A program made the position numbers and the translations under genes. Below are positions 2,236 through 63,494 of a stretch of 64,000 nt of DNA, in pieces. Below the pieces are notes generated by a model. It saw nothing but the letters and a program-made list of their open reading frames with translations. It ran no database searches and was not told the origin of the DNA. The DNA is from Mesostigma viride (lineage: Eukaryota; Streptophyta; Mesostigmatophyceae; Mesostigmatales; Mesostigmataceae), in assembly GCA_009746045.1 (NCBI GenBank), contig RPFO01000579.1, positions 1,214,076-1,278,075 of the forward strand, read 5' to 3'. Position 1 is the first letter of the stretch. Every line of letters begins with the position of its first letter.

Positions 2236-2315
<80 letters not shown>

Positions 2316-4978: not shown

Positions 4979-4979
4979 A

Positions 4980-8472: not shown

Positions 8473-11400
8473 TCACCGCTTGGGTTTGGCGACCGATTTG
8501 TGCTCCTGCAGCCGCCGCAAGAAGTCCCTCTCCTTGGCCGTGATAGGTTTCTCGTCCAGGGTGCCTGCGCGCATGGTTACCAGGGGGGCGGGGGGGGGGG
8601 GGGGGGGGGGGGCACATACGCCGCCGGGGAAGGCGGGGGGCCCACGTGCGCGGCCGGAAGGGCTTGAGTTGAAATGTTTAACAGACACCACCGTGCCATG
8701 GGAACCCACACCACCGTTACATAACTGTGTTGCAGGGACAGCGACATTTGCTATAAGCTGCAGGGTAATGGATGCTATCACGCATCGTGCGCGGCCGTTT
8801 GGGCTGATCCGCTAAGCGGTAAGTTACCCCCAAATTGCTTGATCACGTACTACCGTGATGAGTGCTAACAAGGGTGATGAATGACCACAGTGAATGAAAC
8901 GAGGTCCTGTGCTGGTGGCGCACATGCACTCTACACGTCTCGCGACGCAGAGGACACATGGTCCCTCGTATCGCCGTCCTGCATTTGTCACTACTGGCAT
9001 CCTTATTGTCATGCTTTGTCACTACTGGCATCCTTATTGTCATGCTTTGTCACTACTGGCATCCTTATTGTCCTGCTTTGTCACTACTGGCATCCTTAAT
9101 GTCATGCTTGTCACTACTGGCATCCTTATTGTCATGCTTTGTCACCACTGGCATCCTTATTGTCATGCTTTGCTGTGTGATCTCATGCACCCCAGCACGT
9201 CACGCGACCGGATGATCACGAGATGCCTACGCTGCTGCTATCTACCATGCCCACAAGCGGCACTATCCCTATCAACTGCGGCTATCTACCATGCCCACAA
9301 GCGGCACTATCCCTATCAACTGCCGCTATCTACCATGCCCACAAGCGGCACTATCCCTATCAACTGCCGCTATCTACCATGCCCACAAGCGGCACTATCC
9401 CTATCAACTGCGGCTATCTACCATGCCCACAAGCGGCACTATCCCTATCAACTGCCGCTATCTACCATGCCCACAAGCGGCACTATCCCTATCACAAGTA
9501 CATCCTGATCATTATAATAGTAGCATACAACATAATTTTGGTAGTACACACGCACCGAGCACGTCGCGCGAGGCGATGATGACGTGGTCCCTGTACTTGG
9601 CCGCTTTCGTGACTGGGTTGCCGCGCAGGTCGAGCACGTTCAGGCGGGAGCAGCAGGAAAGGATGCTCTCCACGCCCTGCGGTTGTGTAGTTAGTAAGAC
9701 ACACATACAGAGGGATTGTAGTATATGTTTGGGTACAAAACATAAGCAAGAACGTTCTCCACGCCCTGTGGTTGTATTGTTAATCAGACACATTGTAGTA
9801 TACAAATAAGGACAAAAGGCTAACCCCAACATTAGCAGCAGCAGGACAAGTGTGCATATAGTTAACAGGACATTTGCATATTAATTTAGAAATAGGGATC
9901 GAAATCAAACCCAAATATTGGAATGATCTCCGTGCCCAGTGACTTGTGCATAGAGAATCGCTAAGAAAAAATAATTGTCTGTATCATTTATTGCATCATT
10001 GTGAAAGGCAGCAGCAGGAGAGCCTCCTCTCAGACACACTTTAGAGCAAACGAACCTCTCATACCCATTTCTCTCCATGGTCAGTATAACCTTGTGTGAT
10101 CCATGACCCATCTAACGTTTGGATCCAATACTCGTGCGGCGCTGCAAACTCTCCGGTGACGTGCGCGACCATAGTGCAGATTGTTACAGTGAGGTCACTG
10201 TAGCCATTTACCTCCATGTCCTCGATGAGGTTATGCGACACGTCCAGCGATTGAAGGCTCTGCAGGGACCCCAGGGGCCGGATGTCGGCGATCCGGTTGT
10301 TGCTGGCGTTGAGCACACAGAGGGACGTCTGCGAGCACACAGGCGATATTGAGATATCGGCGCCAGGTGTCAAAAGGCTAGCAAAGTGAAGACAGCGACA
10401 GGTGTCATAGAGATAGCAGACGGGAGATGTTAGGTGTCAAAATGATGGCGGAAAGGACAGCGTAGCGGAAAGAAAAGGATGACGCGAGGTGCAAACAGGG
10501 AAGGGGTGGGATGGTGCCAGGTCATCCAAAGAAAAGGTTAGTAGAAAGCACACAGCAATGCGGGCAAGTCACAGAAGCAGCACAGCAGCAAGAGCGAAAT
10601 GGCGCCAGGTATCCGCTGAACAGGATACAGGCAGCGACAAAGCAACAAAGGCAACTGGCGTGTGGGTCAGGAACTCTTTGCCTTCAATGCAGAAGAGGAA
10701 TTAACTGTAGAGGCAATCACAAAACTATCCTTTCCAGCAACTAAGCCTTTCTTTTCGTCCCGCTGACAAAATTCAGCAAGGAGAGGACGGTATTTGGGGT
10801 TTAGCTGCACATATGCAGCTCGTGGTTTTGTGCACCCCGAGTAGGTGGCAGCTGACACCTGCAGGCTGTCGCCTAGAATGCATTAAAAACCATAAGCCCC
10901 TTCTCAGGGATATGCGTAACATATGCTCCCCACGGAGGTATGTTCTTAATTAATGCGGCCCGCGAAGACAATTGCGTGCGCAATCCCCAGGGTGAGTTTG
11001 ATGTCTATGTTCTACTGTAGTAAGTACGTAGTATACCTATGGTTCACATACTGATTGGTTGATATTTGGTTGATACTCGATCATCATGAACGTTTCGATT
11101 ACTACTCCATCGTCACTCGTATACTGCTCGGCGACCAGGTTGCTACTTAAGTGCCTTTTATAGCGAAACTCTAACTGCGTGTAAAGGATCAAGGAAGCCT
11201 CACAAGGAGACCTACCCCGATCGCAGCCATGCAGTTGTCGTCGAATGCCAGCTGCTCATTTGGCTTCAACTTTTGCCCCGATATGTGCAGCTCCTGCTCA
11301 TGTGTACAATGGTGGGGAGAATGGAGGGTAGATGTGGTAATGGTAAAGAGTCGATTCAATGGCGATGGCAAGGAAACAGCCCTATGTGCAGCTCCTACGC

Positions 11401-14400
11401 TTACAGCTCCTATGTGTATGTATGCAAAGAGAGGATACAGGAGGGTGAAGAGGGTATGACTAGGGTGGTGAGATAGCGAGGGCAGGGAGACAGTCATGAC
11501 TGCAAAGCCCCTGCACATGCGGGGGATGACGGTGGTGGGCAGGCGTATATATATTAATCAATGCATACGTTTACGGCGCTGGCGAATAAATATATGAGGG
11601 TATAGGGATCAGTGTATATCCACCCAATATATAAGGGTATAGCGATCAGTGTGCATCCACCCAATATATAAGGGTATAGGGGTCAGCGTGCATCCACCCA
11701 ATATATAAGGGTATAGCGATCAGCGTGCATCCACCCAGCACGAGGCACACGCGGTCGATGGATAGCGATCAGCGTGTGTATCCACCCAGCACGAGGCACA
11801 CGCGGTCGATGGATAGCGATCAGCGTGCATCCACCCAGCACGAGGCACACGCGGTCGATGGATAGCGATCAGCGTGCATCCACCCAGCACGAGGCACACG
11901 CGGTCGATGGATAGCGATCAGCGTGCATCCACCCAGCACGAGGCACACGCGGTAGATGGATAGCGATCAGCGTGTGTATCCACCCAGCACGAGGCACACG
12001 CGGTCGATGGATAGCGATCAGCGTGCATCCACCCAGCACGAGGCACACGCGGTCGATGGATAGCGATCAGCGTGCATCCACCCAGCACGAGGCACACGCG
12101 GTAGATGGATAGCGATCAGCGTGTGTATCCACCCAGCACGAGGCACACGCGGTAGATGGATAGCGATCAGTGTGTGTATCCACCCAGCACGAGGCACACG
12201 CGGTCGATGGATAGCGATCAGTGTGTGTATCCACCCAGCACGAGGCACACGCGGTCGATGGATAGCGATCAGCGTGCATCCACCCAGCACGAGGCACACG
12301 CGGTCGATGGATAGCGATCAGCGTGCATCCACCCAGCACGAGGCACACGCGGTAGATGGATAGCGATCAGCGTGTGCATCCACCCAGCACGAGGCACACG
12401 CGGTCGATGGATAGCGATCAGCGTGCATCCACCCAGCACGAGGCACACGCGGTCGATGGATAGCGATCAGCGTGTGCATCCACCCAGCACGAGGCACACG
12501 CGGTCGATGGATAGCGATCAGCGTGCATCCACCCAGCACGAGGCACACGCGGTCGATGGATAGCGATCAGCGTGCATCCACCCAGCACGAGGCACACGCG
12601 GTCGATGGATAGCGATCAGCGTGCATCCACCCAGCACGAGGCACACGCGGTAGATGGATAGCGATCAGCGTGTGTATCCACCCAGCACGAGGCACACGCG
12701 GTAGATGGATAGCGATCAGTGTGTGTATCCACCCAGCACGAGGCACACGCGGTCGATGGATAGCGATCAGCGTGCATCCACCCAGCACGAGGCACACGCG
12801 GTCGATGGATAGCGATCAGCGTGTGTCCACCCAGCACGAGGCACACGCGGTCGATGGATAGCGATCAGCGTGCATCCACCCAGCACGAGGCACACGCGGT
12901 AGATGGATAGCGATCAGCGTGTGCATCCACCCAGCACGAGGCACACGCGGTCGATGGATAGCGATCAGCGTGCATCCACCCAGCACGAGGCACACGCGGT
13001 CGATGGATAGCGATCAGCGTGTGCATCCACCCAGCACGAGGCACACGCGGTCGATGGATAGCGATCAGCGTGCATCCACCCAGCACGAGGCACACGCGGT
13101 AGATGGATAGCGATCAGTGTGTGTATCCACCCAGCACGAGGCACACGCGGTCGATGGATAGCGATCAGCGTGCATCCACCCAGCACGAGGCACACGCGGT
13201 CGATGGATAGCGATCAGTGTGTGCATCCACCCAGCACGAGGCACACGCGGTAGATGGTGCAACCCGTACAGACACATGCAACCCGTACAGACACCCAATA
13301 CAGTGCACACCCAGCATACCAGGTGGTACTACTCGCGATGAGGGTTATATTTAGTAGTACTACTCGCGATGAGGGTTACATTTAGTAGTACTACTCGTGA
13401 TGAGGGTAAATGCCCGGTAGTGCAGCCCGTGTAGTAGAGTGTGCATGCACCTGCCCACCTTGATGCGTCAGTAACTGAAGAGAGCTGGCGACGTTTCTCC
13501 AGCATAGAATAGACAAACTCCTAGTATGCAAAGCAACCAGTAGAGCGTGCCCCCCATGCAGTGTCCCCCCGCCCAATCCACCCACCCACCTCGAGGCGTC
13601 GGCAGTGCTCAAGTCCCCCGACGAGGGTGATCCGGTTGCCGTCCAGGTACCTGCTCGCGCACGCAACGGATAGGCACACACACACATACAAACCATGCGT
13701 ATAGAAGCACACACACATGAGGTAACTACTTTGTGCGCACGCAGTGGATGGGCAGTTAAACATACCCACGTACGCACCATAATAATAAATCATGTGACGG
13801 TGATCTGCCAGATGATGCGGCGTGAAAAAAAGACCATGCGCCATGCATGTATTGGAAACGCCCGTGCGGGAGACGCACGCGCCTGCGCAAACGAAACTAC
13901 ATGCCAGGCCAAATACCTTACTCCAGTCTCTGTGATGCGAATAATATGACCCATTCACCCATACACCGGCCAAGTCATCACCAAACCACGCCAAGTATCA
14001 CCCACCACGAGAGCCAAGTTGCTTCTGCCAAACGCCACCAAAACAATCTTCTCCGGCGCCTAACGCTCTCGACAGGATCTACTTTGTGGTTTCCTTCGGG
14101 TTTTATGGCAAGTGCAGGGGAACTGGGGTGCATGGCTGGTGCACCTAACTCTCCAACGGCTCCCCAACGGAACCGCATGACTATTAATCAATTACCTACT
14201 TAATCAGTTAATGGCTGGTGCCAAACCCTGCACAGCCAATCAGAGAGCGCGTGGGCGGTGCAAACCGCTTGTCCCAAAACACCACAACCAAGCAAGGCCG
14301 GACTCACAGTTTTTCCAAGTGGACCATCCGCTGTAGGCCCGTGATGCTGCGGATGCGGTTGTTCTGAGGTCGCGGGAGCCGGAGTGGAATGCCCGGGTGG

Positions 14401-17400
14401 ATTGTGCGGGATGCCCGAATAAACCAACATCAGAAGAACGCCAGAATAACAAGCATCACAATGACGCCAGGGGGCCATACCAGAGTTATACGCGTCGACC
14501 ATGTGCGTGCAGAGTAACACCCAGCGACGTAGACGCCATGGTGTTTATCACAGGGGGGGCGCGCAAGTGCAAAGCAAAGCAAAGCGAAGCAAAGAGGAAA
14601 CTTGCCAGCCAGCCAGGTCAGCGCATACACTCAAAATTGCAACGCCGCTTCTCCAGGGGACTGGACACCTCCGCGCAGCCAGCCATTGATATTTTAGCGC
14701 GGGTGACCGCTAACTGTATTTTATTTAGAAAAGGCTGGTACAGCGATACGCTACTATGCTATATATAGGCTGTAAACTAGTACCTTAATACTACTATTAT
14801 TAGTAGTATTATTTAAGGCTAGTCCTATGCCGGGCCTCCATGTACACTAATGCACTGCTACCGCCTTGGACACACATGCCTTGCCTGACCTGCCTGCAGG
14901 TACAGGTTGGTCGCGGCTACTGCCTTTGACTCACAACCGTCCGTCCTACTTCCAGGTACAGGTGGCTTGCGGCAACTTACTTCTATAACCAGAAAGGCCG
15001 GACCTACCTGTAGGTACAATCAGGCAACAGGTGCCCGTCACTACGCATCCCATTGCCCGACCTACCTGCAGGCACAGGTTGCACGAGTTGGACACCGCTA
15101 GTGTCTTTGAGACACGACCATCCTACCTACCTGCAGGTACAGGTGGGTGATGCGCAGGGTGCCCTCGAATCCCTGTATTTTGCGGATCGCGTTGTCGTAC
15201 AGGTAGATCACCTGGACGCCCGCGCAGCCGGACAGGTTGCTCTGGCGCACGCAAACGCCAAGGAGCAGGCAGCGTGGAGCAAAAGGAACGACCACGGAAA
15301 GGAAATATTCAGGGACACGGCCAGGGCACCTTAAGGACATTATAAGGACACTATAAAGAGCAGGCAGCTTGGGGACACAGTAAGGGTACAGTAAGGAGAG
15401 AAAAGACCACGGAAAGGAAACAGCGAGGAGGGGCGCCGTGGGTTGCTCTGGCGCACGCAAACGCGGTCCAAGCAAAGGAGCATGGGGTCGCCCGTAGGAC
15501 CACCGCGGGCAGCACCGGACTTTTCACGCACGCAACACCGTTCGAGCAGCGAACGACGTAAGGACACAGCAAGGACACAGTAAGGACATGGTAAGGACAC
15601 AGCAAGGACATGGTAAGGACACAGCAAGGACACAGTAAGAACACAGCAAGGACACAGTAAGGACACAGCAAGGACACAGCAAGGACACAGTAAGGACACA
15701 GTAAGGACTAAGAACACGCTAAGAACACAGCAAGGATGCACACACACACACACTCACAAATAAGAGCTCACAATCGTATGAGCGCCCTTGCCATTGAACC
15801 GCAGGTACTGGACCTCACTCTCGCGCACCCGACTTTCCATACTTACTAGAAGATGCAGGCAGTGCTAGAATATATACTACATAGTAGTAGAACTAGTATT
15901 ATACTTTTAGTAGCATAATTGTTATAGGACTAATTAGATAATTAGAGTCTAATCATAAACATAAAATAGACTAGATAGCATTTACTAGAATAATAGAATG
16001 ATAGGGTGCAGTAGACAGCACACATAGTTGTGGATGCTCTTGCCATCGAGCCTCGAATGCGTTGGCTTCGCACATGCACAAAAACTACCATACAAAATCT
16101 TATGCTGGCCATCGAGCCATGCCAAGGCCACGCACGGCCTTGTGGCCGCTCAGCCTCAAGCTTGCCGTTCAGACTCAAGTGCGTGAGCTTCCAATTCCCA
16201 ATCCCCTGACAATCCCTTCAACCACCGGTGGCTATTTGTCCATGCCAAGGCCACGCACAATCTTTTGGATGCCCTTGCCGTTGAGCCGCAAGTGCGTGAG
16301 CTTCTCCAGGAACGCGTCCGCGGGAGGGAGCCGGCCGATGGTCGGGTAGTTGCCGCCCGCCAACAGCATCTCCTGGGATATCCCTGGCAGGTGGGAGTCA
16401 TCCTCCTCGGTGTCCTGCAAGGTAGAGGGGGCGGCGCCGCGGCGGAGGGGGTGGGGGTGGGGGCGGGGGAGGGCGCCGGGCCAAGGGGGTGGGCGAGGCT
16501 CCGGCACGTCACCAGCATTATCAACAACATGCCACGTCAAAGACCACCATGTCAAATCATTCGCAAGAGGAAGCAACCGAACGAGTTGCCAAATCACCAG
16601 CGGCACACAACAACACAACATCGTCATGCCACATGGACCCCGCGTGCGCCTCCCCACGCACAACGACAAGTACGCACAACACTACGTACAACAGGCACCG
16701 CTCGACTGGCCCGCGCCTGGCAACAGGTACACCGCTCGCTAGCGTGCCACAACAGAGGCACATCGCTGGGTTGCAACGCGTGCGCAGCTGCCACAACAGA
16801 GCCACATCGCTGGGTTGCAACGCGTGCGTAGCTGCCACAACAGAGGCACATCGCTGGGTTGCAACGCGTGCGCAGCTGCCACAACAGAGGCACATCGCTG
16901 GGTTGCAACGCGTGCGCAGCTGCCACAACAGAGGCACATCGCTGGGTTGCAACGCGTGCGCAGCTGCCACAACAGAGGCACATCGCTGGGTTGCAACGCG
17001 TGCGCAGCTGCCACAACAGAGGCACATCGCTGGGTTGCAACGCGTGCGCAGCGGCCACAACAGAGGCACATCGCTGGGTTGCAACGCGTGCGCAGCGGCC
17101 ACAACAGAGGCACATCGCTGGGTTGCAACGCGTGCGTAGTGGCCACAACAGAGACACATCGCTGGGTTGCAACGCGTGCGCAGCTGCCACAACAGAGGCA
17201 CATCGCTGGGTTGCAACGCGTGCGCAGCTGCCACAACAGAGGCACATCGCTGGGTTGCAACGCGTGCGTAGCTGCCACAACAGAGGCACATCGCTGGGTT
17301 GCAACGCGTGCGTAGTCGCATCACGCCAGGTCCCCCACGTACCTGCGCCGCCCTCCATCCAGGGACCGAGCCATCACGATAAATATGACGATAAATATGA

Positions 17401-18206: not shown

Positions 18207-18469
18207 GGTGGAGCGCGATGAGGCCGGGATGGGGCCATCCGCCGCGTCAGGAGCCGAAGAGGAGGCCTTGGGACCCTGGGCGGTGCCGAGTACGACAGAG
18301 ACGCGCCGGAGGGGGGGGCGGTTGCCTGCGCGGCATGGATTTGGAGGGGGACATTGTGCGTGAGGGGAAAGGTGGCATCGATATCCCGGTGGCTGCTATC
18401 GAGCATGATACTAGGCACTTGGCTGCCTGCGCCCTATCGGGCGGGACCGCAGGCATTATGTACACCCGT

Positions 18470-19266: not shown

Positions 19267-31934
<12,668 letters not shown>

Positions 31935-32855: not shown

Positions 32856-34569
32856 ATGCCGCTGGTTGTGATAGGAGCGGGGTTTGGTAGGACGGCTACG
32901 CTGTCGGTCAAAGATGCGCTGGAAAAGCTGGGCTTAGGGCCGTGCTACCATATGAAGGAGGTCACCAAATACGGGGACGAAGACAAGTGGATCGAGGCTG
33001 CGGATACCATCGATAACAAGGGCGGTCACTACGACTTCGAAAAGATTTTCAGGTACGTTTGGCGCGATGAGAAGGGCACGGCGACTATTTTGCAGTCATG
33101 TGAAGACATCAATGCGTTACGGACGTAATTGGATGTTGGCACTGTATCCGTCGTTACACATTCGAGTTAAGCACATAATACGCGTATGCACACGCTAGCG
33201 CCAACAACGGTTTATTGACAATTACACGTGCCATGGTAGAGTCCCTCAGTGTGTTCTTGGGCGAATAAGCCTAAATCGCTATCAGGTTTGAGACGTTGCC
33301 TTCTGCAGGTTCGTCTGCATTCCTCAATCCAGCGTTCAGTGCAGTTCTGTGCGCCACGGCCTGTGCCAGGTCATTGGTCCACGTTCTGCCAGCATGGAGT
33401 TGGGCTCCCTAAGCACAGGCAGCGCTTGTGAGTCGTGAGTTTTCTTCCAACGCGAGAGACGTTGGCAGTTGTAGACGCATACAATTCTCTGCGCCAGGGG
33501 CAGCATTACTTCCGTTACCCTAATGTGATAAGCAGCAAGGGCCGAGCTGGATTGTGGTGGGACTTTGGCTACGGAGACTTGAGGCCTTAACTCGAGCTCT
33601 GCCAGTAAGCTGCAAATAGTGCTGATGCTTTGGCTCTCCAGACATGTGAAATGTACACTGGAAAGGTTGAAAAGATATCCGTTTCTTTCAAAGACTACTG
33701 TTTGCATCACAATAGCCATTATCGCCAGAGCATGCATATCTGGCTTTGTGTGACGCATGCCAGATGCGTCCGTTAGTTCAAACCTGTTGTTCCCAGGGAC
33801 ACAGGATAGATTCATCTGGGTTCATGTGCTTTGTTTTGCTGGTTAAATTGGCAAGGACAAATGACCTAGAGAACAGAGTCTAGGCAGGGCTCTGCCGATA
33901 CGACGTCTCTCCCATTTCGTGTCCACATGATGAGTCCCTGTGTCACTGCGATAGTCACCCAGTACTGGAAATATTTGGATCGGCACAGGGCTCATAATCC
34001 CTTTTCTTCGATATTATCGTATCGCAATGCATGAGGGTTTGCCTAGGCAGGGGGTCGGATGGGCCGAATCTAGGCCTTGCAAAGACGTAGTTCCCCTGTC
34101 TTCCACGAGCCCCCTTCAGGAGGACGATGGCAGTCTGCCTTGACATACCCACCTGTCGTTGCTAATGGTGCAAGTCCGCCACCTCAGACGGTGCCTCGCA
34201 CAGCGGCAGGTGCCATTATCCGTGTGTCTTTCACTGCAAGATGGATCCCTCGCCCACACTTCTGTCGTGGTTACATCTCCCTGCCGCGCATTCATGCAGA
34301 TTCAGTAAAATAATTTACTTGCAAACCATTTTAAAGCGATAACCCGCCCGATAAACTATTTTTAGCCCGTTGGATGCCTCGTCCTTTACCCCAACCCTCC
34401 CTTGCATGCACCCCACCATGCACATTTGCAACACCCTGGATGCCTGTGAGCCCTTCCCCTCGAGGCTATACCCTGATGATGGATGCATCCCCTTCCTATG
34501 ACTGATCTCCTATACCTTCATCCCCTTCCTATAACTGATCTCCCTGGTATTAGAACAATTTCGTAGTCC

Positions 34570-34600
<31 letters not shown>

Positions 34601-34968
34601 ACCACCACCAAGCTACCCACCCAACCCACCCACTCCCATACGCACGCACCTGCAGCGCCCCTGAAGAATGCGAGCGGCTCTGAAGTGATTAGCTCCTGCA
34701 ACAATTTCTTATTTGCGCAGTATGCCACCCCGCCTGCTGTATTATATCCTGCCGTATTATGTCCTGCCATATTATGTCCTGCCGTATTAGGTCCTGCTGT
34801 ATTATGTCCTGCCATATTATGTCCTGCCGTATTAGGTCCTGCTGTATTATGTCCTGCCGTATTCTGTTCTCCCATGCACTATTCGCAGCGCCCCCGACCG
34901 CCGTGAGCTGTTCCCTGTTCATTCTCATGGACCAGAACATAATCCTACCGGGTGTCACCCACCCACCC

Positions 34969-34999
<31 letters not shown>

Positions 35000-37900
35000 T
35001 TACCCCCACTTGCAGCGCCCCCGACGGCCGCGAGCCGTTCCGCAGCACGATTGACTTCCCCTCAGCGAGCTACTACAAGGAGCTGATGGCGCAGTACCCG
35101 GATGCCAAGGTGGTGCTGACAGTGCGCGAGTCAGCCGACAAGTGGTACCAGTCGTTCGCGGAGACGGTCGGGCAGAGCCAGGGGTACTCTTTATTCCCGC
35201 TCTCGCTTCTCAACTCCAAGTACCTGAAGATGATGCACGTGCGTTACGACGTAATCTAATTTTATATCTGCCGTTTATACCCGCTCTCGCTTCTCAACTC
35301 CAAGTACCTGAAGATGATGCACATGCGTTACTATAGCAGCGTATGCTATTGTAGTAGCAATGCTGGTATCATTACGGTAGATTTATTGGTGCCTCAGGCC
35401 CTAGCCAATCCCACTCTCGCTTTACCATGCGAATCGCCTCTAGAGGATGCAAGTACGAGAGGCCGATAAATATCTAACATAAGAAAAAATATATATAAAT
35501 ATCAATAATCTCAATCATCTATCAATAATCTACTACTATATAAATATCAATAATCTAATACCTGCGTGCGCTTACTCTCAGGTGGCTACTCGTGTCCTCA
35601 CACAAAATTGGACCGCCATGCGTCCAGGAGTATTTGTCTCACTTCATGTAGTATCTAATAATCCTAGATCTATCGGTACCTCGGTTACTATGTGGTCCCC
35701 CTCTCGCTGCACTATGCATAATATCTCAACACACGATGCGTGTGCGTGGCTATCTATCAATGAGACAACCAGCGCTATGTATGTTCACTATGTGTGTGGT
35801 TATCTATCAATGAGATAACCAGCGCTATGTATGTTCACTATGTGCGTGGCTATCTATCAATGAGACAACCAGCGCTATGGATGTTCACTATGTGTGTGAC
35901 TATCTATCAAGGAGACAACCAGCGCTATGTATTACTTCACACAGAGGATGTGCTGCAAAGCGGCAGCCTTGCACGCGCATGTGTGTGTGTGGCAGTCATG
36001 CATGCGTTTGCACCTGGTCACTTGCGCACGGATGTAACCATGACACGGACATGTGTGGATGTTGTTGCTGCCGCTGTGCAAGGCATTCCATATTGATCTT
36101 TTTGCATGTTGGTCTTACCTACTGCAAGTATTGTACATCGCTTCATTCAACAGTTGCTACCGCTTTGTGAGGCAACGCCTTGCTGTCTAAGAGGAGTTGA
36201 GTAGGTGGCAGAATGGCACGAAGTGGATGGATGACCTGTGCCCTGCGTGCGTGAAACTGTGTTGGTGGTTGTTGTTGCATGCCTGCCAGTGTGTGGTGGG
36301 TGGTGGGTTGAAAAGATTTGATTGGCACACATGTGCGCATGAACCGCGCTGACACCTGTGGCCGTGTCTATCACTCACCTGAGCATGTTTCTACTGCCCC
36401 TCTGTACATGTGTGCTCTTACCCTGCAGGCCACCATCTGGGACAAGAAGGACGTTTTTGACGGCAAGTTCCACCAAAAGGGCGGCGACGTGTTTGCCAAG
36501 CAGGTGTATGACCGCTGGGTGCAGGAGGTCAAGTCCACCATGCCTAAGGACAAGCTGTTGGTGAGTGTGGTAGCCTTCATGCTTCAGTCTCTTTTCTCTT
36601 TTTCCCTCCCTCCCTCCCTCCCTCCCTCCCTCCCTCCCTCCTCCCTCCCTCCCTCCCTCCCTCCCTCCCTCCCTCCTCCCTCCCTCCCTCCCTCCCTCCC
36701 TCCCTCCTCCCTCCCTCCTCCCTCCCTCCTCCTCCCTCCCTCCCTCCCTCCCTCCCTCCCTCCCTCCCTCCCTCCCTCCTCCCTCCCTCCCTCCCTCCCT
36801 CCCTCCCTCCCTCCTCCTCCCTCCCTCCCTCCCTCCCTCCCTCCCTCCCTCCCTCCCTCCCTCCCTCCCTCCTCCTCCCTCCCTCCCTCCCTCCTCCCTC
36901 CCTCCCTCCCTCCCTCCCTCCCTCCCTCCCTCCCTCCTCCCTCCCTCCCTCAGTATGGATCCTGGTTGTAGTTTAAGGCCAGGCCATTGTAGTCCGCAGC
37001 TGTGTCTTTGTGATGCAGAGCAGTGATACTGCCTTGCAAACTAAGGGGGGCAGGTACCCAAAGTTGGCGTAGGCAGATTGCTTGTGGCACTGACTTGTAC
37101 CAGCATTAATTCGCAGCAAGGCAAAGAACAGGCTCCCGCAAGGCTTTATGAATGTCAAAGCTGCTTGTCTGACGTTACCAAGTGTGAAGTACCATGCATC
37201 TAGCTTGTCTCGAATCCGGTTCAGACCAGCCCCCAACCATTTCGGGGAGGAAATAGGGAGGCAAGAAAGCTCCTGAGAGGTTGTTGGGCTAATCGGTGCA
37301 GTGGACAGTACAGAAAAGTGGTGCAAATTGATTTTCCTGCACCGCATGGTCATGTATTATTGTATTCAACCATCCTAAGTATGTCCACATTCTAGACAGA
37401 TCGCTTATGCTCCCTCATCTCTCTGCATTTACACTCTAGGAATTGCTGGAACTGCTCTCTTAAACTCGAATCAAACCAACGTCTGAAAGCAGGCAACCTA
37501 GTGACACCACATCTAAATCGCAGGTGCCTAGTTTCTTCCCTCTATGACTGGCATCAATTTATTCTATGACACAGTTACGTGAAATTTACTTAATTAATTA
37601 ATTACTGGCATCAAGGGGCGCCTTACCAGTATGGTTCACCTGAGCGGATGTGGGACACCAGAGTGGTGGCCAGTGCCAGCAGCAGGTGTAGTTAATTCAT
37701 TACTAAGCACGTGACTGTGTCACGTGGGTGCCAATACAGAGTAAAGTAACCTTCAACCCCTATACACAACAAGAAGGAGGGGAGGCGCCCGAGCTTCTGT
37801 GACTGCCACAATTAGGGCCACAGAGCGCTCAGGTGTAAAACTTGCCACTGCATTTAATCTCACACTGTGGATTTGACGTTTCATGCGCGACTGACTGATG

Positions 37901-38143
37901 TCTGGTGGATGTCTTGTGCAGGTGTTCAACGTCAAACAGGGCTGGAAGCCGCTGTGCGAGTTCCTCAACGTTCCAGTCCCCAGCATTCCCTTCCCTAGCA
38001 GTAATGAGCGTGCAGAGGTTCAGACCGCCAGCCGATCACTGTTCAAGTTGAGGCCGCTTGGTTATGCAGGCGCGGCCCTTGGTGCTGCTGTTGTGGCCGC
38101 AGCGGCCTACCGTGTCGTCTCAACCCATCGCAACTCCAGCTAA
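32856..38143 (+). CDS. Sulfotransferase-like P-loop protein, copy 1, four exons
   Basis: Member of the family often listed as sulfotransferase family protein (Sulfotransfer_4-like), predicted to use a PAPS-type sulfate donor; the substrate is unknown. Exons 32856-33052, 35016-35238, 36429-36560, 37922-38143 give 257 aa. All introns are GT-AG, with phases 2, 0 and 0. N-terminal VVIGAGFGRTATLSVKDAL is the P-loop/5'-phosphosulfate-binding type motif, followed by LGLGPCYHMKEV, STIDFPSASYYKEL, then AKVVLTVRESADKWYQS, the strand-helix region that holds the 3'-phosphate Arg/Ser. ATIWDKKDVFDGKFHQ and VFNVKQGWKPLCEFLNVPVP complete the fold. The C-terminus has a hydrophobic segment (GYAGAALGAAVVAAAAY), a likely tail anchor. 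The P-loop has Ala where the paralogue has Gly (GRTAT versus GRTGT). The ATG is the first in frame at the P-loop strand. Confidence 0.88.
33130..34480. other. Intron 1 of sulfotransferase-like copy 1
   Basis: Mixed-composition intron DNA with no exon or repeat that I can support. Confidence 0.4.
34568..34603. repeat. Poly-C tract in sense strand of intron 1
   Basis: About 30 uninterrupted C bases followed by ACCACCACC, just upstream of the acceptor-edge copies of exon 2. Confidence 0.9.
34646..34920 (+). repeat. Two copies of exon 2 acceptor edge (copy 1 gene)
   Basis: The real edge is ACTTGCAGCGCCCCCGACGG followed by CCGCGAGCCGTTCC (35008-35041). Copies: ACCTGCAGCGCCCCTGAAGA with ATGCGAGCGGC (34648-34678) and ATTCGCAGCGCCCCCGACCG with CCGTGAGCTGTTCC (34881-34914). 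A 19-bp ATTATGTCCTGCCATATTA-type repeat fills 34735-34865 between them. Confidence 0.85.
34735..34868. repeat. 18-bp repeat (ATTATGTCCTGCCGT)
   Basis: About seven units of TATTATGTCCTGCCGTATTA with GGTCCTGCTG variants, flanked by exon-edge copies in intron 1. Confidence 0.9.
35272..35331 (+). repeat. Near-perfect copy of exon 2 donor edge (copy 1 gene)
   Basis: About 57 bp spanning CCGCTCTCGCTTCTCAACTC and CTGAAGATGATGCAC repeat the end of exon 2 about 86 bp downstream, with only two mismatches. One changes the donor from CACGTGCG to CACATGCG, so the copied GT is destroyed while the real one is kept. Confidence 0.95.
35340..36380. other. Intron 2 of copy 1 gene, with 60-bp repeats
   Basis: Four units of CTATCTATCAATGAGACAAC plus CAGCGCTATGTATGTTCACT lie at about 35745-35935. 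The rest is unremarkable. Confidence 0.7.
36603..36952. repeat. (CCCT)n array after exon 3 donor
   Basis: About 350 bp of CCCT with occasional CCT interruptions, starting about 40 bp after the donor of exon 3 of sulfotransferase-like copy 1. The sense strand is pure pyrimidine. Confidence 0.95.
36960..37900. other. Intron 3 of copy 1 gene
   Basis: No gene seen. A solitary hairpin of the LINE-A type (AGCACGTGACTGTGTCACGTG) at about 37706-37726 beside TTAATTAATTA suggests a small retroposon 3' end. Confidence 0.5.
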
Positions 38144-38154
38144 TTGATTACATA

Positions 38155-38880: not shown

Positions 38881-38884
38881 ACGA

Positions 38885-43680: not shown

Positions 43681-43729
43681 GCGTGGACCAATCCCAGCAG
43701 TTTGGCATCCAGCTGATGGGTATGTGTTA

Positions 43730-43985
43730 ATAGTCTCTATTCATGCATAAATGGGTGCTGATAAATGCGAGAACATAAATGGGTGCTGATAAATGCGAGA
43801 ACATAATTAATGGGTGCTGATAAATGGGAGAACATAAATGGGTGCTGATAAATAAATGGGAGAACAATAAGAACATAAATGGGTTGTCTCCTTGATAAAT
43901 GGGTGCTGATGTAAAACGTAAATTGATGCTGATGGAAAACTCAGTGACATTGTCCATATGACATCTTGTGTGATAGACTTGGCCT
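43730..43985. repeat. TAAATGGGTGCTGATAAATG repeat
   Basis: About seven units of AACATAAATGGGTGCTGATA with length variation, between retroelement relics. No coding role seen. Confidence 0.85.
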
Positions 43986-44029
43986 CAACATGTGTTATCC
44001 TAGCAAGCACGGCTCACACCTAGTCAGCC

Positions 44030-44200
44030 TCCGGGCTTAATTGTCTGTCATTTGGCGGCAGATGCCCCGCAAACAGCGGTGGCATGAGGTTATGCAGGCT
44101 GCCCTCCTCCAGGCTGTGGGGCCAGTGCTGCGTGTGACCCAACATGGTAAACATAGTAATTCGGGCCGTGGAGGCGCGCAGCCCCGCCACTCGCGGTTTG
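44030..44200 (+). mobile_element. Diverged LINE-A C-terminal fragment
   Basis: TCATTTGGCGGCAGATGCCC, GGTGGCATGAGGTTATGCAG and GTGTGACCCAACATGG parallel the LINE-A C-terminus (SVIWRQMVRKDRWQVVMKE, VGAPRVTKYGIHSDSGRG). It would encode LSVIWRQMPRKQRWHEVMQA, clearly older than the 56-63 kb copies. Confidence 0.6.
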
Positions 44201-44399
44201 GTAGCCCCGCCACAGTGGGGGTTAGGTAGCCCCGCACTCGCGGCTAGATAGAAACCTTCTCCCCCCATCTGCACCCCCACCTCAGGATTTACGCGCATTT
44301 GATGCAGTCTACGTGTTTATTGATATAGTGTGACTAATCTTGAAGTAAGTAACTACTATTTGATTCATCAAATGCTTAAAGCTGACCGAAGGCCCGGGT

Positions 44400-45870: not shown

Positions 45871-45874
45871 TTAG

Positions 45875-46215
45875 GAAACCTTTATAGTAGGGCTCTAGCG
45901 GGTTGTGGGTGAACCCTGGGTATGCCCCTAAAAACCCTCAGGCTCCGGGAGAGGCCTTTATATTCTCCTGGGCTATGGTGGGTTAGCATATGCAACCTAC
46001 CCTCACACCCGTCATCATGGCTTAGCGCACAGTCATCTTGAATAGTCCGGATGACGCGGAGTTGCTATCTGCGACTCTAGACCTGAGCGAGTGAGTCGCA
46101 CGCCACTTGCCTTCGCGGGTGATGTAGCCGGCGGCGTACAAAAGAACCTCATCGCGTACTCCGTGGCATGCCTTTGAGTGCATGTTCACGCACTTACTCA
46201 CTTACTTACTTTAGT
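45875..46215. other. No gene recognised
   Basis: Single-copy-looking DNA between the LINE-B 5' end and a tetranucleotide array. Confidence 0.4.
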
Positions 46216-46218
46216 TAG

Positions 46219-46580
46219 TTAGTTAGTTAGTTACTCACTCACTCACCCACCCACCCACCCACCCACCCACCCACCCACCCACCACCCACCCACCCACCCA
46301 CCCACCCACCCACCCACCACCCACCCACCCACCCACCCACCCACCCACCCACCACCCACCCACCCACCCACCCACCCACCCACCCACCCACCCACCCACC
46401 CACCCACCCACCCACCCACCCACCCACCCACCCACCCACCCACCCACCCACCCACCCACCCACCCACCCACTCACTCACTCACTCACTCACTCACTCACT
46501 CACTCACTCACTCACTCACTCACTCACTCACTCACTCACTCACTCACTCACTCACTCACTCACTCACTTACTTACTTAGG
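46219..46580. repeat. (TTAG)n-(CCCA)n-(CTCA)n tetranucleotide array
   Basis: Blocks of related 4-bp units follow each other: ACTT/TAGT, CCCA (about 230 bp, three ACC slips) and CTCA (about 100 bp), ending in CTTA. All are one substitution apart, as expected from replication slippage and spread of variants. Confidence 0.95.
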
Positions 46581-46739
46581 GCTCTAGCTCGTTTTGAAAA
46601 ACACGTGAGAAGGGACACATGTGGTCCGAGCTGTTTGCCATTCGTAGGACTTGCTGCATCCCTGCTAGACACAGCTTCATGGCAAAAAACGTGATTGTCA
46701 GCTCATTTCAAGATCCACATTCATCCATTTAATTTCATT

Positions 46740-47315
46740 TTATTTAATTTACACGTAACTGCGTCACGTGAGCGTAAGTCGAGGCTCAGGGAAATGAATA
46801 TGGGATGGGGTGGATGGATGGAGCTATCTAGATCCGAGATACAGCGGCTGTGTGCACCACGGCCTGAATCGCTATGCATGCCAAACTTGGTCACACACGG
46901 AGCCCCCACTGACTTGGGGGTGGAATCCTGCATTACTACATGCCACCGATCATTGCGAGTCAACTGCCTCCATATTACAGACAGACGAGGGGGTTCCTCG
47001 GGCATGAGCCCCCCCCGTCAAGGGTAGCACATGTCCATGCCTAGCCTATCACAGAAAGTCCACGGAGGGCGACCCGGCCTTCGTGCGGAGCCTGGAGCAT
47101 GCCAGGTGAGGACAAAACGCCCGGGCTGCGCGGGCTTGGTGCCAGCTACCTTGTCTGATGTGTCTACCTGATCTGTGCGGACCAGGTGCCCGGCTAGGCC
47201 CAGGCGCCTATGCCTAAGAATGTGGGAAACATATGGTAAATCAGCAAATCAGCGCGCAAATCCTAATTGCTTATGTGCAAACTGAATGGAATATGAAGTG
47301 CCTTGCGCAGCATCT
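46740..47315 (-). mobile_element. Old LINE-A 3' fragment
   Basis: ACACGTAACTGCGTCACGTG (hairpin with a mismatch), then GGATGGGGTGGATGG, GTGTGCACCACGGCCTGAAT, GCCTAGCCTATCACAGAAAG and GGCCCAGGCGCCTATGCCTA up to about 47315. It is roughly collinear with the LINE-A C-terminus but with many substitutions and an inactivated reading frame. Confidence 0.8.
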
Positions 47316-47379
47316 CTGCATTCATCCATGTAGTATAGACGACTTAACCTGTGAAACCACCAGCATGCGGGACTCACGT

Positions 47380-47382
<3 letters not shown>

Positions 47383-47474
<92 letters not shown>

Positions 47475-47497
47475 CGGGGGGGGGGGGGGGGGGGGCG
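47383..47497. repeat. (GA)n microsatellite followed by G tract
   Basis: About 85 bp of GA, then CCC and about 22 G bases. Intergenic. Confidence 0.95.
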
Positions 47498-47499
47498 GG

Positions 47500-49207
47500 C
47501 GGGAAAGCTAGAGACGGAACGAGGCAGAAAGAAATGTTTAAAACGCTTTTCACCCCACCCCACCACCCCCAAAGATAAATAGTTCAACTTGCGATGATGA
47601 GAAAGATTGAACCGAATAGTGAACAAGTGCAAGTACAGCAATTATGCTGGAACGGACTCGTACAGCCTGATTCAAGGAAAGTGTCTAGGAAAACGCAAAG
47701 CATGCGGTCCGCACTGACAGAGTTTCCAGCCGTCATGGCCTCCATCCACACCCTGTGCTTGCGCCGTATCGAAGTCCTTGTGCATCTAACCATATATCCC
47801 TGATCAAGCATGCTGTTTCCGGCCCCACAGTCTAGGTCATCTAGTCGCTCTACACGTAAGCCAGCCATAATTTCAATGCACAAGGATACACATTTCCATC
47901 ACCATTCATCTTCATCATCCTGAACGACTCGAACACGCGGACAAGATAACGGCAGGCTCGAGCTACCATGGTCCGGATTCTCCCGATTTCTGGCCTGCGC
48001 TGGTTGTCTCCTTGATATATAAGCGACATGTCGATGGCCAGCTGCCAAGATGACATTCCCGAGGTCATTCGCTTTCTTATGGTAGATAGTGCCATCGTGC
48101 GGTAGCGCTCAATACCCCCCCCCTCAACTTCAAGCCTCACCGCACAACCTATCTCATATCTGTGCTCTCGGAATGATAGGCCGCGGTGTGCAACGACATT
48201 GTCTCGCGGACGCCAGACGGCAAACAGAAACGATGCCGTTGTCCACGCATTTGCTTGGACGCCGTCATTCTCGGGCATCGTACAATTAGGACATAAGTGT
48301 AGATAAACGGAACATCTTTTGCAAGCCTCCCCAAGGCTCAAATATCATCAAATCCGTTTATCTAATAATTAGGGATAATGCAGTGGACAGCGAGAAGCTC
48401 AGCGGGAAGATCTGGGCGTGAAAAGAGACAATAAAAGGCGCGCGCGCACATGGATACGAGATCTTATCAAGTGCGTGCAACACGCGATGTAACTCATCCT
48501 CGTCCCCGTGGCACTGCATGCACCGCGAGGCATAGACACGTGGCACGCGGGGCGAACCGCTCTTTTTGGCCTTCCACATCTGCTCTCAACTCTCAAGCTC
48601 AAACACGAAGGTTTACTTTGCAGTAGAGGGTGATTACTGATTCCCCGTTTGCTGGGCACGTGTGCGGTGTGACAAGTGGCACCCGCATTTGCACACTTGA
48701 TCAATTAAGGGTTCATATAGTTCTAGTTTCGTAAAACTTTCGTAAACTAGAGTACTAAACTAACACAAAAACCCAACACGTCGGCGTGTGCTACCCGCGC
48801 AAGACACTACATAATTATTTCATCATTACACACAGCTATTTTCCAGGACTTAATTCGAGCTCTCACCCGGCGCTGAGCCTGGGTTGATCGTCATCTGCAC
48901 GGCCTTCATCTACATTGACTTCCGCCATACATTGACTTCTTGCACGACGTTTGGGTCCGGCCGGGGCTGTTTGGCATAACGCGGTGGAGGCCTACGTGCA
49001 TAGTTTGCCCCGTTATCCCTGGCACTGGTTGTGGGCATGTTCGGTTCTTCAAGAGTCACTTCTTAGACTGCCGGAACGTAGAATAATATCAGCTGGGCGA
49101 CGCCATTTTCGCAACTAGCTGTTTTCTTTCTAACACCCTCCCCCCCCCTTCACGTGTGCTAGTCTGCATCTTGTAAGCCTCAGTAGTAATTACTCAAAGA
49201 GGTAAAA
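47500..49207. other. Intergenic, upstream of sulfotransferase-like copy 2
   Basis: No gene supported. A minus-strand open frame (47850-48341, 163 codons) shows no recognisable motif and no codon bias like the confirmed exons; it could be an unrecognised exon. The promoter of copy 2 must lie at the right end. A C-run and CACGTG occur at about 49140-49156, 50 bp before the start codon. Confidence 0.4.
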
Positions 49208-52200
49208 ATGCCTTTGGAAGTCATAGGAGCCGGGTTCGGGAGAACAGGTACGCTTTCCCTAAAGGGTGCGCTTAACCTACTGGGCTTTGGGCCTTGTTAC
49301 CATATGATGGAGGTGATAAAAAATGGCGACATCCAGAAGTGGATCGACGTCGCTGATACAATCGACCGCAAGGGCCGCGACTACGATTTCGAGCAGATTT
49401 TCAGGTAAGGAAGGCATGCTTAGGTAATGGATCTCTATTTTGGGGAACGCTTCCCAGAGCAAAAATGTTTGCCTCTGCAGCTACGTTCCACGAGGGTGAC
49501 CCCATTTGGGGTGGTCAGCTGGCTGGGGCATGGAGTACTGCCAGCACCCGCCTCTCGAATGAACGGGGGGTTCTCCCCATGGCGTTCTGCCGCATGGGCA
49601 ACGGTCAAACCCTACTAGCCAGTTAATGCATCCTAAGCCGTTTGTGGTGGTTGTCGTTGTAGCTGCCGCTCTTGTCCGTTGGAGCTTATCAAATGCAGGG
49701 CAAGGTAGCCGCGACAACTGAGCCCTTTGTTGGGCACTAGACCGATAAGATTCCAAAGTGGACACGAGAATCACGTCGTTGGATACCAGGATGCAGCCTG
49801 CCCATATACCAGAGAATGATACCAGAGTAGTTGGGTAGCAGAAACTACGACACTAATTACTAATACGATACCAGCATTGTAAAATAGTCTATGTGCGAAG
49901 GTGTTCTATTCATGAAATGGTGTTGTTGTTTGAGACAAGTCTCGTTTGTGAGATGACATGTTGTTGTTTTACATTAGTTTTTTCTTCCTGCGGTTTAGGG
50001 AAATTGCGTGGGGACCGTGGCCACTGGCAGGCGGGCAGAAAGCCACTGCATGGTCATGACACAGCTTCCTGCCAACTCAATGTTCTGCTTTATTCTGAGT
50101 CTCAGACTCCTCAGTAGCGGTTTACCAACATTTTCGCAATCTAACCCCCTTTCAAAAAGGGGCTGCCTTGAGAAGCCGCAGACTCACCTCAGTGCCAACG
50201 CCTGCCAGATGGGAAGCGGACCCCATGCAAGGGCAATTGGGACCACCCATGGGAACGTAGCATGGGACGAACCCTAAGATGATGTATTAGGACACAGTCT
50301 GCTATACAATGATGGGACCACCCACGTGGAACAATACCATGGGCCGATACTTCGTTGAACGACACAATAGGACACTTGGTAATCCTAGTCCAATAGTACG
50401 ATCCTCGCCCAGCATGTGCCACAGGAGGTGCACCCCAGGGCTCCGCCTTTTGGCGTCGCCCCAGCTGGGGCCGGGTAGCGTGTAGTAGGCGGGGAGGGGA
50501 GCGTATAACACTAGGCCTGCTTGCTCGCCTCTCCGCCTCTTAGTATCTGGTCCCCTGGTGCACCTGGCCTCACCATGCCACCTGTCAACAGCTCAGTGCT
50601 ATAACTAGCAGTTATTTTCCACCGCTCACGCCAGTGGATCCACATGCCCACATGTACGGGTCTCATATGGACTTGAGCTGGCGGTTGTACTGACGTAGTT
50701 TTTTTTTTTTTTTTGTAAGTTGATTGTCTCCTGAGAAAGTGCTTTATCCTACCGGATATGCCCCCCCCACCTGATGCCATTTATGCAGCGCCCCTGATGG
50801 ACGTGAACCAATCCTATTCGATCACTCCTGATAACAACTTAATTCTACCGGATGTCACACACATATTACCCCCACGTGCAGCGCCCCTGACGGCCGCGAG
50901 CCGTTCCGCAGCACCGTCGACTTCCCCTCCACCAGCTTCTACAAGGAGCTCCTCAAGCAGTACCCAGGTGCAAAAGTGATCCTGACGGTGCGCGACTCGG
51001 CGGAAAAGTGGTACCAGTCAGTGGTGGAGACGATCGCTGGCTCGCACGGCCGCTACTACTGGCCGCTCAACATGCTCAACTCCAAGTTCCAGCAGATGGT
51101 CCACGTGAGCGAAGTTTTTCAAACTGTTTGTTTTGTTTTGAGGCAAATTGTTTGGTATGTATGGGTCAGTTTTGAGTGGTTTGCAACAGCTGATGGTCCA
51201 CGTGAAGGTTTTCAAACTATATGTGGTATTCTAAGTAGATATATGGCTCGTGCTTGGTTTAGAGAAAATTTTCTCAGCATGCTTAACGCCAAATTGCAGC
51301 AGATAGTCCGTGTGAGTGTACCTTTAAGCCACCACTAGTACTTGTGGGTGCTGAAATTGCTCGTGCTTTCTGCCTGCTCCTCTTTCAAGTTCCAAAAGAT
51401 GGTCGGCATGATATATTTTAAAATGTTGCTATTTTATTTGTCAAAATACTCTGTTTTTTCTTGAAACTATTCAACATTATGCTTCGGAACTGATTGTGCA
51501 GGTGAGTTGGCTGGCTCACATTATTTGTTATGTTTAAAAGACTCTTGTCTTTGCTCCTTGGCGAAGTTCCCAGTTCCACAAACACAGCTATTTGTTTAGA
51601 ATGCTGATGCATCCATCAGGCATCTCCAAAGCCACACATACACACAAAATAATAATAATAATAATGATGATGATAGTGCTCGCAAGGGCCATCGTCCATC
51701 ATTTTCAGGCCGTCGCTTTGCATGCACAATGGCCAGATTTTTCTGCATGCCCCCCCCCCACCCCCACCACCCATACACATTACACCCCCTTATTCGCCCC
51801 TTTGTGCATGCCTCTTCATCTGTCCACCCACGCAAGCAGGCCACTGTGTGGGACAAGAAGATTGTTTTTGACCGCAAGTTCCACACCAAAGACGGCGCCG
51901 CGCACGCGCAGGAGATCTACCTGCGCTGGATCGAGGAGGTTAAGAGGGTGGTGCCCGCAGAGCAGCTGCTGGTGGGTGCTGCTGGGATCATTGTTTGTCC
52001 TGTTTAGTCATTACTAAAGGGCTACACGCGTGGTGCCCGCAGAGCAGCTGGAGGGTGGCATTATAGAAACTCTTAAGTGGCTTTGGTAATATAATGACTA
52101 GTCTATAGTAAAACCTCTTACAAATGATTGCTTGGAGCAAAAGGAATGGTGTCCCCAATGCAGCTGCTGATGGGTGCTTCTGGGATAAGAACCCATCTTG

Positions 52201-52785
52201 TTTAGTCAGTAGTAATACAACATTTGTGTGTGTGTGTGTGTGGTGCCCACAACTAGCAGCTGCTGAAAGTACGGTACTCTGTACGAATGCTTGAAGCTGG
52301 TAGCGTTTCTGCCTTAGTTTACTAGCTTAGTTTTTGCAATATGACTGCGCCCGAGAAGCAGCCGCTGGTTTATGCATTGTTGAACAAATACTGTAGCAAG
52401 TCATCATTGAACAATTCATTGCGAAGTCCTAGCAATGATCCTAGCGCCCAAGAGGCAGCGGCTCAGGTGCGTGTCATTCATAATTTTTCTTTGGTGTGTG
52501 GTATTAACTTGATTCATGGGCCCACGCCTCTTTCTCTGAATCGTCTTTGGTTTGCAGGTGTTTAACGTGAAAGAAGGATGGGAGCCGCTATGCAAGTTCC
52601 TCCAAGTTCCCGTCCCAGATGTACCCTTTCCATGCTTGAACGACCGTGCGGAGTTCAAGGCACGGTTCATGTCAAAGCCCAAGCCAGGCGACACGAAGCC
52701 CACGCTGGTCTATGTGGGCATAGGGCTTGCTGCCGTAATGATGGCCGCTGGGCTTGCCCGCCTGGCAGTTACACGGAGCTCCTGA
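49208..52785 (+). CDS. Sulfotransferase-like P-loop protein, copy 2, four exons
   Basis: Paralogue of the 32.9 kb gene with the same exon plan: 49208-49404 (197 nt), 50882-51104 (223), 51840-51971 (132), 52558-52785 (228), giving 259 aa with phases 2, 0 and 0. EVIGAGFGRTGTLSLKGAL is a textbook P-loop of the family, followed by LGFGPCYHMMEV, STVDFPSTSFYKEL, AKVILTVRDSAEKWYQS (3'-phosphate region), ATVWDKKIVFDRKFH and VFNVKEGWEPLCKFLQVPVP. The C-terminal hydrophobic run (VYVGIGLAAVMMAAGLARL) suggests a tail anchor. The first three exons have exactly the same lengths as copy 1, so the pair arose by gene duplication. The 11-kb gap is now filled by retroelements. Substrate is unknown. Confidence 0.88.
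50783..50820 (+). repeat. Copy of exon 2 acceptor edge (copy 2 gene)
   Basis: TTATGCAGCGCCCCTGATGG with ACGTGAACCAATCC copies ACGTGCAGCGCCCCTGACGG with CCGCGAGCCGTTCC (50874-50907). The CAG is intact. The same spacer words (CTACCGGATGT, CACAC) recur. Confidence 0.8.
51183..51412 (+). repeat. Three copies of exon 2 donor edge (copy 2 gene)
   Basis: Exon end: TTCCAGCAGATGGTCCACGT (51087-51106). Copies: GCAACAGCTGATGGTCCACG (51183-51203, GTGAAGG donor kept), AACGCCAAATTGCAGCAGAT with AGTCCGTGTGAG (51283-51315, GT kept) and AAGTTCCAAAAGATGGTCGG (51387-51406, donor lost). The first copy also repeats the intron text GTTTTTCAAACT. Confidence 0.85.
52028..52270 (+). repeat. Three copies of exon 3 donor edge (copy 2 gene)
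   Basis: Exon end: GTGGTGCCCGCAGAGCAGCT (51948-51967) followed by GCTGGTGGGTGCTGCTGGGA. Copies: GTGGTGCCCGCAGAGCAGCT (52031-52050), ATGGTGTCCCCAATGCAGCT with GCTGATGGGTGCTTCTGGGA (52146-52185) and GTGGTGCCCACAACTAGCAG (52240-52260). Downstream intron words (TTGTTTAGTCA, TACTAA) are shared. Confidence 0.85.
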
Positions 52786-63492: not shown

Positions 63493-63494
63493 TG

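What the first reader, a model, noticed from the sequence alone, without database searches (positions are those of the whole stretch)
8473..52785. Splice-junction copies seeded through introns of four unrelated genes
Beside most exons of the PPP1R42-like, TOG-like and both sulfotransferase-like genes, the intron holds 1-4 degenerate copies of the exon edge. Each is tens of bp of exon plus the splice site plus some intron. Clear cases: 35272-35331 (57 bp, two mismatches), 30262-30500 (three tandem copies with GTAAGT), 14886-15080, 15765-16195, 20867-21535, 51183-51412, 52028-52270. Donor edges are copied downstream and acceptor edges upstream, so copies always extend the intron. The pattern suggests introns grow by repeated local duplication across the splice junction, leaving decoy splice sites. 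I know of no named system with this behaviour.
Basis: partly seen in the sequence, partly recalled or inferred. Interest (0 to 1): 0.9.

Follow-up and report, generated by a model that had tools for sequence, protein, structure and literature searches.

The report
Exon-edge copies that lengthen introns
In the green alga Mesostigma viride many introns have grown by short local duplications that copied the edge of the neighbouring exon, splice site included, in steps of roughly 95 bases, leaving decaying fake splice junctions inside the introns.

Summary
The window is from Mesostigma viride. With exon borders set by homologous proteins, 11 of 26 junctions of PPP1R42-like, SULT1 and SULT2 have a copy in their own intron, each above all its null introns. 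It recurs in ABCB and in two families chosen blind: HSP70, 4 of 52 junctions after dropping two low-complexity hits, and CCT, 4 of 16, one marginal. A third sulfotransferase has none, 0 of 6. Nearest copies mostly lie 60-135 bp away, often in regular steps; nearer ones are less decayed (Spearman -0.50, n=40). Exon windows centred 60 bp or more inside lack copies at score 15 (0 of 106).

Best reading: serial break-repair-type short duplications; purifying selection keeps the outermost splice site, so survivors lengthen the intron. Precedents are single boundary-crossing duplications, not a repeated genome-wide route.

No sign of use or selection.

The parts
8474..16420 (-). PPP1R42-like LRR gene: exons 16420?-16259, 15241-15131, 14363-14308, 13650-13590, 11293-11216, 10328-10212, 9676-9556, 8564-8474
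15769..16191 (-). three copies of the exon-1 donor edge (16191-16106, 16079-16018, 15815-15769), shifts 113, 234, 487
15441..15464 (-). 24-bp identical copy of the exon-2 acceptor edge, shift 206
14853..15079 (-). four copies of the exon-2 donor edge, shifts 65, 123, 181, 237
13445..13469 (-). copy of the exon-4 donor edge, shift 131 (weak and G-rich, score 15)
9748..9792 (-). copy of the exon-7 acceptor edge, 82%, shift 89
8913..9228 (-). two copies of the exon-7 donor edge (9228-9184, 8992-8913)
20747..21535 (-). TOG-like gene: acceptor with exon starting near 20747; copies near 21411 and 21526 and, by eye, near 20881; 20907-21312 between them is an unrelated 21-bp minisatellite
   Evidence: exon border read from the sequence, not from a homologue
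30262..30558 (-). TOG-like gene: donor near 30558 and three copies in a 96-bp tandem array
   Evidence: border read from the sequence
32856..38140 (+). SULT1 (PF17784 sulfotransferase): exons 32856-33052, 35016-35238, 36429-36560, 37922-38140
   Evidence: spliced alignment to P0001, 62% identity
34423..34914 (+). three copies of the SULT1 exon-2 acceptor edge (34423-34457, 34618-34685, 34885-34914)
35274..35747 (+). copies of the SULT1 exon-2 donor edge: 35274-35331 (97%), 35409-35469, 35683-35747
49208..52785 (+). SULT2: exons 49208-49404, 50882-51104, 51840-51971, 52558-52785
   Evidence: 258 of 258 aligned residues identical to the public Mesostigma model P0001
50746..50814 (+). copy of the SULT2 exon-2 acceptor edge
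51187..51535 (+). copies of the SULT2 exon-2 donor edge at shifts 97, 207, 302 and a doubtful one at 395
52030..52369 (+). copies of the SULT2 exon-3 donor edge at shifts 82, 199, 292 and a doubtful one at 396

Best explanation
These are fossils of serial short duplications that each copied a block of about 20-60 bp spanning an exon-intron border (exon edge, splice site, some intron) and set it down again roughly 60-135 bp further into the intron, either as a true tandem unit or with unrelated filler between. The likeliest chemistry is break repair: two offset nicks, fill-in of the overhangs and end joining, sometimes with filler (inferred; not shown). A duplication inside an exon breaks the protein and is purged; one that spans a border is harmless as long as the outermost site is used, so every survivor lengthens the intron. 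Repeats at the same border push older copies inward, where they decay. Shown here: the copies, their spacing, the decay with distance, the lack of deep-exon copies, recurrence in other gene families. Inferred: the repair route, neutrality of the copies. Probable but not proven: borders are duplicated more often than intron interiors.
For: 11 of 26 window junctions with copies, null exceeded each time; 20 of 42 including ABCB (9 of its 16). Families chosen blind: HSP70 4 of 52 after dropping two low-complexity hits, null 0 of 288; CCT 4 of 16, one of them G-rich and at the threshold, null 0 of 112. Of 53 copies scoring >=15, 40 span the border, 3 are exon-only, 10 intron-only. Exon windows centred >=60 bp inside: 0 of 106 at score 15. 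Nearest-copy shifts: 20 of 24 in 60-135 bp, median 96.5 (figures typed in). Runs such as 72-144-216, 65-123-181-237, 97-207-302 and, in a CCT gene, 87-171-256-338, the last one scoring 14. Identity falls with distance, Spearman -0.50, p=0.0009, n=40. Two young spaced cases are 58-bp blocks parted by 26 and 45 bp of AT-rich sequence; the last ABCB intron and the TOG donor have plain tandem units of 72 and 96 bp. SULT1 and SULT2 copies match their own paralogue (read by eye; at the acceptor this rests on one base), and SULT3 has none and mostly shorter introns, which suggests that the copies arose after the paralogues split.
Against: No mutation was seen happening and no second strain was compared. 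Block ends were read by local alignment, so their lengths are uncertain. Affected genes are patchy: in HSP70, 3 of 6 junctions of the mitochondrial-type gene L035 and 1 of 2 of L047, 0 of the other 44 once low-complexity hits are dropped; SULT3 0 of 6. The border preference weakens or vanishes when minisatellite arrays are kept. The copies before two ABCB exons (A4 and A9 in the numbering) share sequence and are not independent.
Confidence: 0.62

Rival explanations
1. Uniform local duplication: noncoding DNA of this genome duplicates short stretches everywhere at one rate, and border copies are merely the ones that happen to include an exon edge, which stays readable because the exon does not decay.
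For: TRF arrays cover 23% of the 264 kb examined. With arrays kept, intron-interior windows have copies about as often as borders: 232 of 750 against 11 of 26, p=0.28; 135 of 927 against 6 of 52 in HSP70, low-complexity hits included; 34 of 278 against 4 of 16 in CCT.
Against: The exon's constancy buys only 1.46-1.59-fold detection in simulation, while per kb borders lead 4.0-fold in the blind sample and 5.5-fold in the window genes plus ABCB (all sets p=0.0005, but that includes selected genes). Without arrays: 11 of 26 against 30 of 520, p=4e-7, and in HSP70 at score 17, low-complexity border hit dropped, 4 of 52 against 8 of 762, p=0.005.
Confidence: 0.27
2. The copies are kept by selection, as decoy or spare splice sites or as U1-binding sites.
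For: 34 of 40 spanning copies keep GT or AG within 2 bp.
Against: The dinucleotide is kept about as well as its neighbours: donor +0 21 of 25, +1 24 of 25, exon positions -1 to -10 19-24 of 26; acceptor -2 11 of 11, -1 10 of 11, exon +0 to +4 10-12 of 11-12. Identity decays with distance. Paralogues differ in having copies at all.
Confidence: 0.06
3. The copies are real alternative exon edges used in some transcripts.
For: Many keep plausible donor or acceptor motifs.
Against: Extending the exon to the copy meets a stop in 33 of 40 cases; only 3 of 40 are in frame and open. The public Mesostigma models P0001 and P0134 use the outermost sites. RNA data were not available.
Confidence: 0.03
4. 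A mobile element such as an introner, or a retroelement with long target-site duplications, inserted near borders and left the duplicated flanks.
For: Two young cases look like block, short insert, block.
Against: The copied text is private to each border: no null intron reached the score of any of the 11 hits; nulls 0 of 288 and 0 of 112. By eye the two inserts share no sequence. True tandem cases have no insert. No search for an element was made genome-wide.
Confidence: 0.04

Closest known systems
Tandem duplication crossing an intron-exon boundary in the potato RdRp gene (PMC4974935, passages read)
   Same: a local duplication that includes the intron-exon border and its splicing signals
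   Different: a single event that made a new intron; here repeated events enlarge existing introns and the outermost sites stay in use
Rogers model of intron gain by duplication of an AGGT exon segment (as described in PMC4974935 and, for Drosophila, PMC2891723; passages read)
   Same: short tandem duplication near splice motifs, protein kept intact by splicing
   Different: that model duplicates exon DNA to create the GT and AG ends of a new intron; here the duplicated block carries an existing border and I see no new intron
Small tandem duplications at breaks with overhangs made by offset nicks, via CST and Pol alpha-primase (PMC8355091, passages read)
   Same: short duplications from nearby nicks; the passages speak of overhangs of 43 and 50 bp, close to the block sizes here
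   Different: mouse and human cells with induced nicks; no link to splice borders, and the enzymes were not looked for here
Minisatellite arrays in introns
   Same: tandem units, also abundant in this genome
   Different: the arrays looked at do not carry exon edges, apart from the TOG donor array; most periods listed are below 60 bp
Introner elements (recalled)
   Same: enlarge or create intron sequence with splice sites
   Different: introners are shared sequence at many places; these copies match only their own border

Membership tests
Border-crossing tandem duplication (potato RdRp type) | duplicated block spans an intron-exon border | tested here: met
   40 of 53 copies span the border
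Border-crossing tandem duplication (potato RdRp type) | the duplication yields a new spliced intron | tested here: not met
   public models P0001 and P0134 splice at the outermost sites; the copies lie inside the introns. Other genes have no public model here
Rogers AGGT intron gain | duplicated exon segment supplies both ends of the new intron | tested here: not met
   donor-edge copies were sought and found from the donor inward and acceptor-edge copies from the acceptor inward; deep-exon copies 0 of 106
Introner elements | one sequence family in many introns | tested here: not met
   junction 50-mers do not match other introns tried: null 0 of 288 and 0 of 112 at score 15; no null intron reached the score of any of the 11 hits
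Small tandem duplication by break repair | short direct duplication with defined block ends | tested here: met
   58-bp blocks in two young cases, 72- and 96-bp tandem units
Small tandem duplication by break repair | dependence on CST, Pol alpha-primase and end-joining factors | not testable with these tools
   needs mutants
Alternative splice sites | compatible with the reading frame | tested here: not met
   3 of 40 in frame and open
Alternative splice sites | used in transcripts | not testable with these tools

The most novel reading that the evidence does not exclude
Splice borders are mutational hot spots in this alga: staggered DNA breaks are placed around the border as a by-product of transcription or splicing (for instance at a paused spliceosome or an RNA-DNA hybrid), and each repair adds a step of about 95 bp, so introns grow from their two ends like tree rings.
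Probability: 0.25. Interest if true: 0.85.

Novelty: new variant of a known kind. Interest (0 to 1): 0.62.

Why it matters
How introns lengthen is usually put down to transposons and ordinary repeats; the Mesostigma genome paper does so too (30.1% of intron space repetitive; PMC6947507, passages). A route that works from the exon edges leaves copies that can be put in order, because the exon keeps the original text, and so lets the growth of single introns be read. It also creates many near-copies of real splice sites that the spliceosome must ignore. If borders prove to be hot, it would tie intron growth to transcription or splicing.

Tried and rejected
Exon constancy as the whole cause of the border excess: simulated, only about 1.5-fold. 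Introner-like element: copies are private to each border among the introns tried. Alternative exon edges: frame and stop test. Selection for splice motifs: per-position table shows no clear excess. Inverted copies were looked for at the 26 window junctions: three weak ones, scores 14-16. A list of 'outside' events was spoiled by self-matches in my script and was redone. A run of pyruvate kinase against the left flank gave only two trustworthy exons. One search also lists self-matches at shift 0, which I ignored. Literature: nine searches, seen as listings, plus passages of four papers; none describes this pattern, which does not prove it is unpublished.

Full report
What the window is. A composite protein from the second sulfotransferase-like gene returns the Mesostigma viride model Mesvir1 22437 at 96% identity (that 'Mesvir1' stands for Mesostigma viride is recalled), and the spliced alignment of that model to the window is identical at 258 of 258 aligned residues. 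The window is C1813:1214076-1278075 of a 439.9-Mb assembly. The published genome is 442 Mb with a mean intron of 1,142 bp (PMC6947507, passages).

Gene models. SULT2 comes from the public model; SULT1 is its paralogue at 62%. The internal PPP1R42-like exons agree across three references (P0121-P0123); the first exon's start is open. The next gene in the right flank, an ABCB transporter, matches its public model P0134 from residue 16 on. The TOG-like exon borders were read from the sequence only.

The observation. For each of 26 borders I took 30 bp of exon (or less where the exon is short) and 20 bp of intron and searched up to 1 kb of its own intron. Eleven score 15 or more, and in those cases none of the 12-24 null introns reached the score. 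With ABCB, 20 of 42 borders have spanning copies; of 53 copies at score 15 or more, 40 span the border, 3 lie in the exon only, 10 in the intron only (the 5-nt first ABCB exon and its intron were dropped). Forty-bp windows centred on the border have an intronic copy at score 15 in 18 of 42 cases, windows centred 60 bp or more inside the exon in 0 of 106, or 1 of 106 at score 13. The nearest copy is usually 60-135 bp away, 20 of 24, median 96.5, and further copies often follow at similar steps. Copies nearer the exon are better preserved (Spearman -0.50, p=0.0009, n=40).

Elsewhere in the genome. Two families were chosen before I had seen their introns. L046 was left out as broken, a spurious mini-intron in L033 was merged, and doubtful small exons of L035, L043 and L045 were dropped, which left 52 borders of 26 introns in 15 loci, several of them paralogues. 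Six score 15 or more, null 0 of 288; two of the six are runs of C or CCCAC (L035 A2953, L037 A2509). The four others are in the mitochondrial-type gene L035 (shifts 107, 105, 95) and in L047 (103, 93% identical). L035 D3422 reaches 15 only with a longer query (12 in the 50-mer test). CCT: of 22 candidate introns between neighbouring exon matches I could fetch nine, and one gave no border, so 16 borders of 8 introns in two genes were tested; the last C777 border is weakly placed. Four score 15 or more (three 17 or more; the fourth is G-rich), null 0 of 112, with a run of 87-171-256-338 in one intron, the last step scoring 14. In the left flank, an exon that looks ITPK-like has three acceptor copies and one donor copy, and a pyruvate-kinase-like exon has one at each edge; these were met in the scan, so they are not a blind sample, and the ITPK name is recalled. 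SULT3 on C1738 has 0 of 6, even at score 13, and introns of 1197, 354 and 511 bp against 1477, 735, 586 in SULT2 and 1963, 1190, 1361 in SULT1. Whether C1738 is Mesostigma and not a contaminant I did not test.

Anatomy of young cases. SULT1 exon 2: a 58-bp block, 26 bp of other sequence, the block again at 97%, then unrelated sequence. L047: a 58-bp block, 45 bp at 27% GC, the block again at 93%. These are not plain tandem repeats. The last ABCB intron has plain 72-bp units and the TOG donor plain 96-bp units. So both filler and plain forms occur, as in end-joining repair (PMC8355091, passages, for duplications at offset nicks; the comparison for filler is from general knowledge).

Is the border special? 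For: outside TRF arrays, window borders 11 of 26 against 30 of 520 interior windows (p=4e-7); HSP70 at score 17, low-complexity border hit dropped, 4 of 52 against 8 of 762 (p=0.005). Simulation says that the unchanging exon explains about 1.5-fold. Against: with arrays kept, the interior fractions are 232 of 750, 135 of 927 and 34 of 278 against borders 11 of 26, 6 of 52 and 4 of 16, no significant excess in the first (p=0.28; the other two were not tested). I assumed 80 bp of opportunity per border. I therefore call the hot spot probable, not shown.

What the copies do. Probably nothing. Most keep a GT or AG (34 of 40), but 33 of 40 extensions meet a stop and 3 of 40 are in frame and open; the splice dinucleotide is not clearly better kept than its neighbours.

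Compared with what is known. The nearest precedent is a single tandem duplication crossing an intron-exon border in a potato gene that made a new intron (PMC4974935, passages), and tandem duplications with proto-splice sites in Drosophila (PMC2891723, passages). What differs here is repetition at the same border, a characteristic step, recurrence in eight gene families by my count (three of them, TOG-, ITPK- and pyruvate-kinase-like, without a full gene model), and growth of existing introns. I file it as a new variant of a known kind.

Noticed in passing
G000:C2011:86408-88192 and C2011:1347332-1348840: The best HSP70 and Cpn60 matches of the assembly lie in single open frames of 649 and 554 codons on C2011, which looks like a bacterial contig in the assembly.
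   Followed up: no
G000:C1641:60944-67934 and C887:345845-349664: C1641 and C887 carry CCT exon matches with identical scores at three exons, as if one locus was assembled twice.
   Followed up: no
window 28844-29616 and 24573-25469: Long simple arrays, (GGGTT)n of about 155 units and (GA)n of about 450 units, in the stretch of the TOG-like gene.
   Followed up: no
window 11713-13257: A 49-bp minisatellite of 31 units makes up most of one PPP1R42-like intron.
   Followed up: no
window 1033-5080 and 54000-63600: Retroelement-like reading frames (gag/integrase-like at the left, LINE-type reverse transcriptase pieces at the right), seen in the ORF list only; the labels are recalled.
   Followed up: no
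right flank, C1813, introns upstream of the two ABCB exons that begin at positions 187318 and 164703 of the joined 264-kb stretch: The two halves of one gene share not only exon but intron array text, so the arrays were probably copied between the halves.
   Followed up: partly
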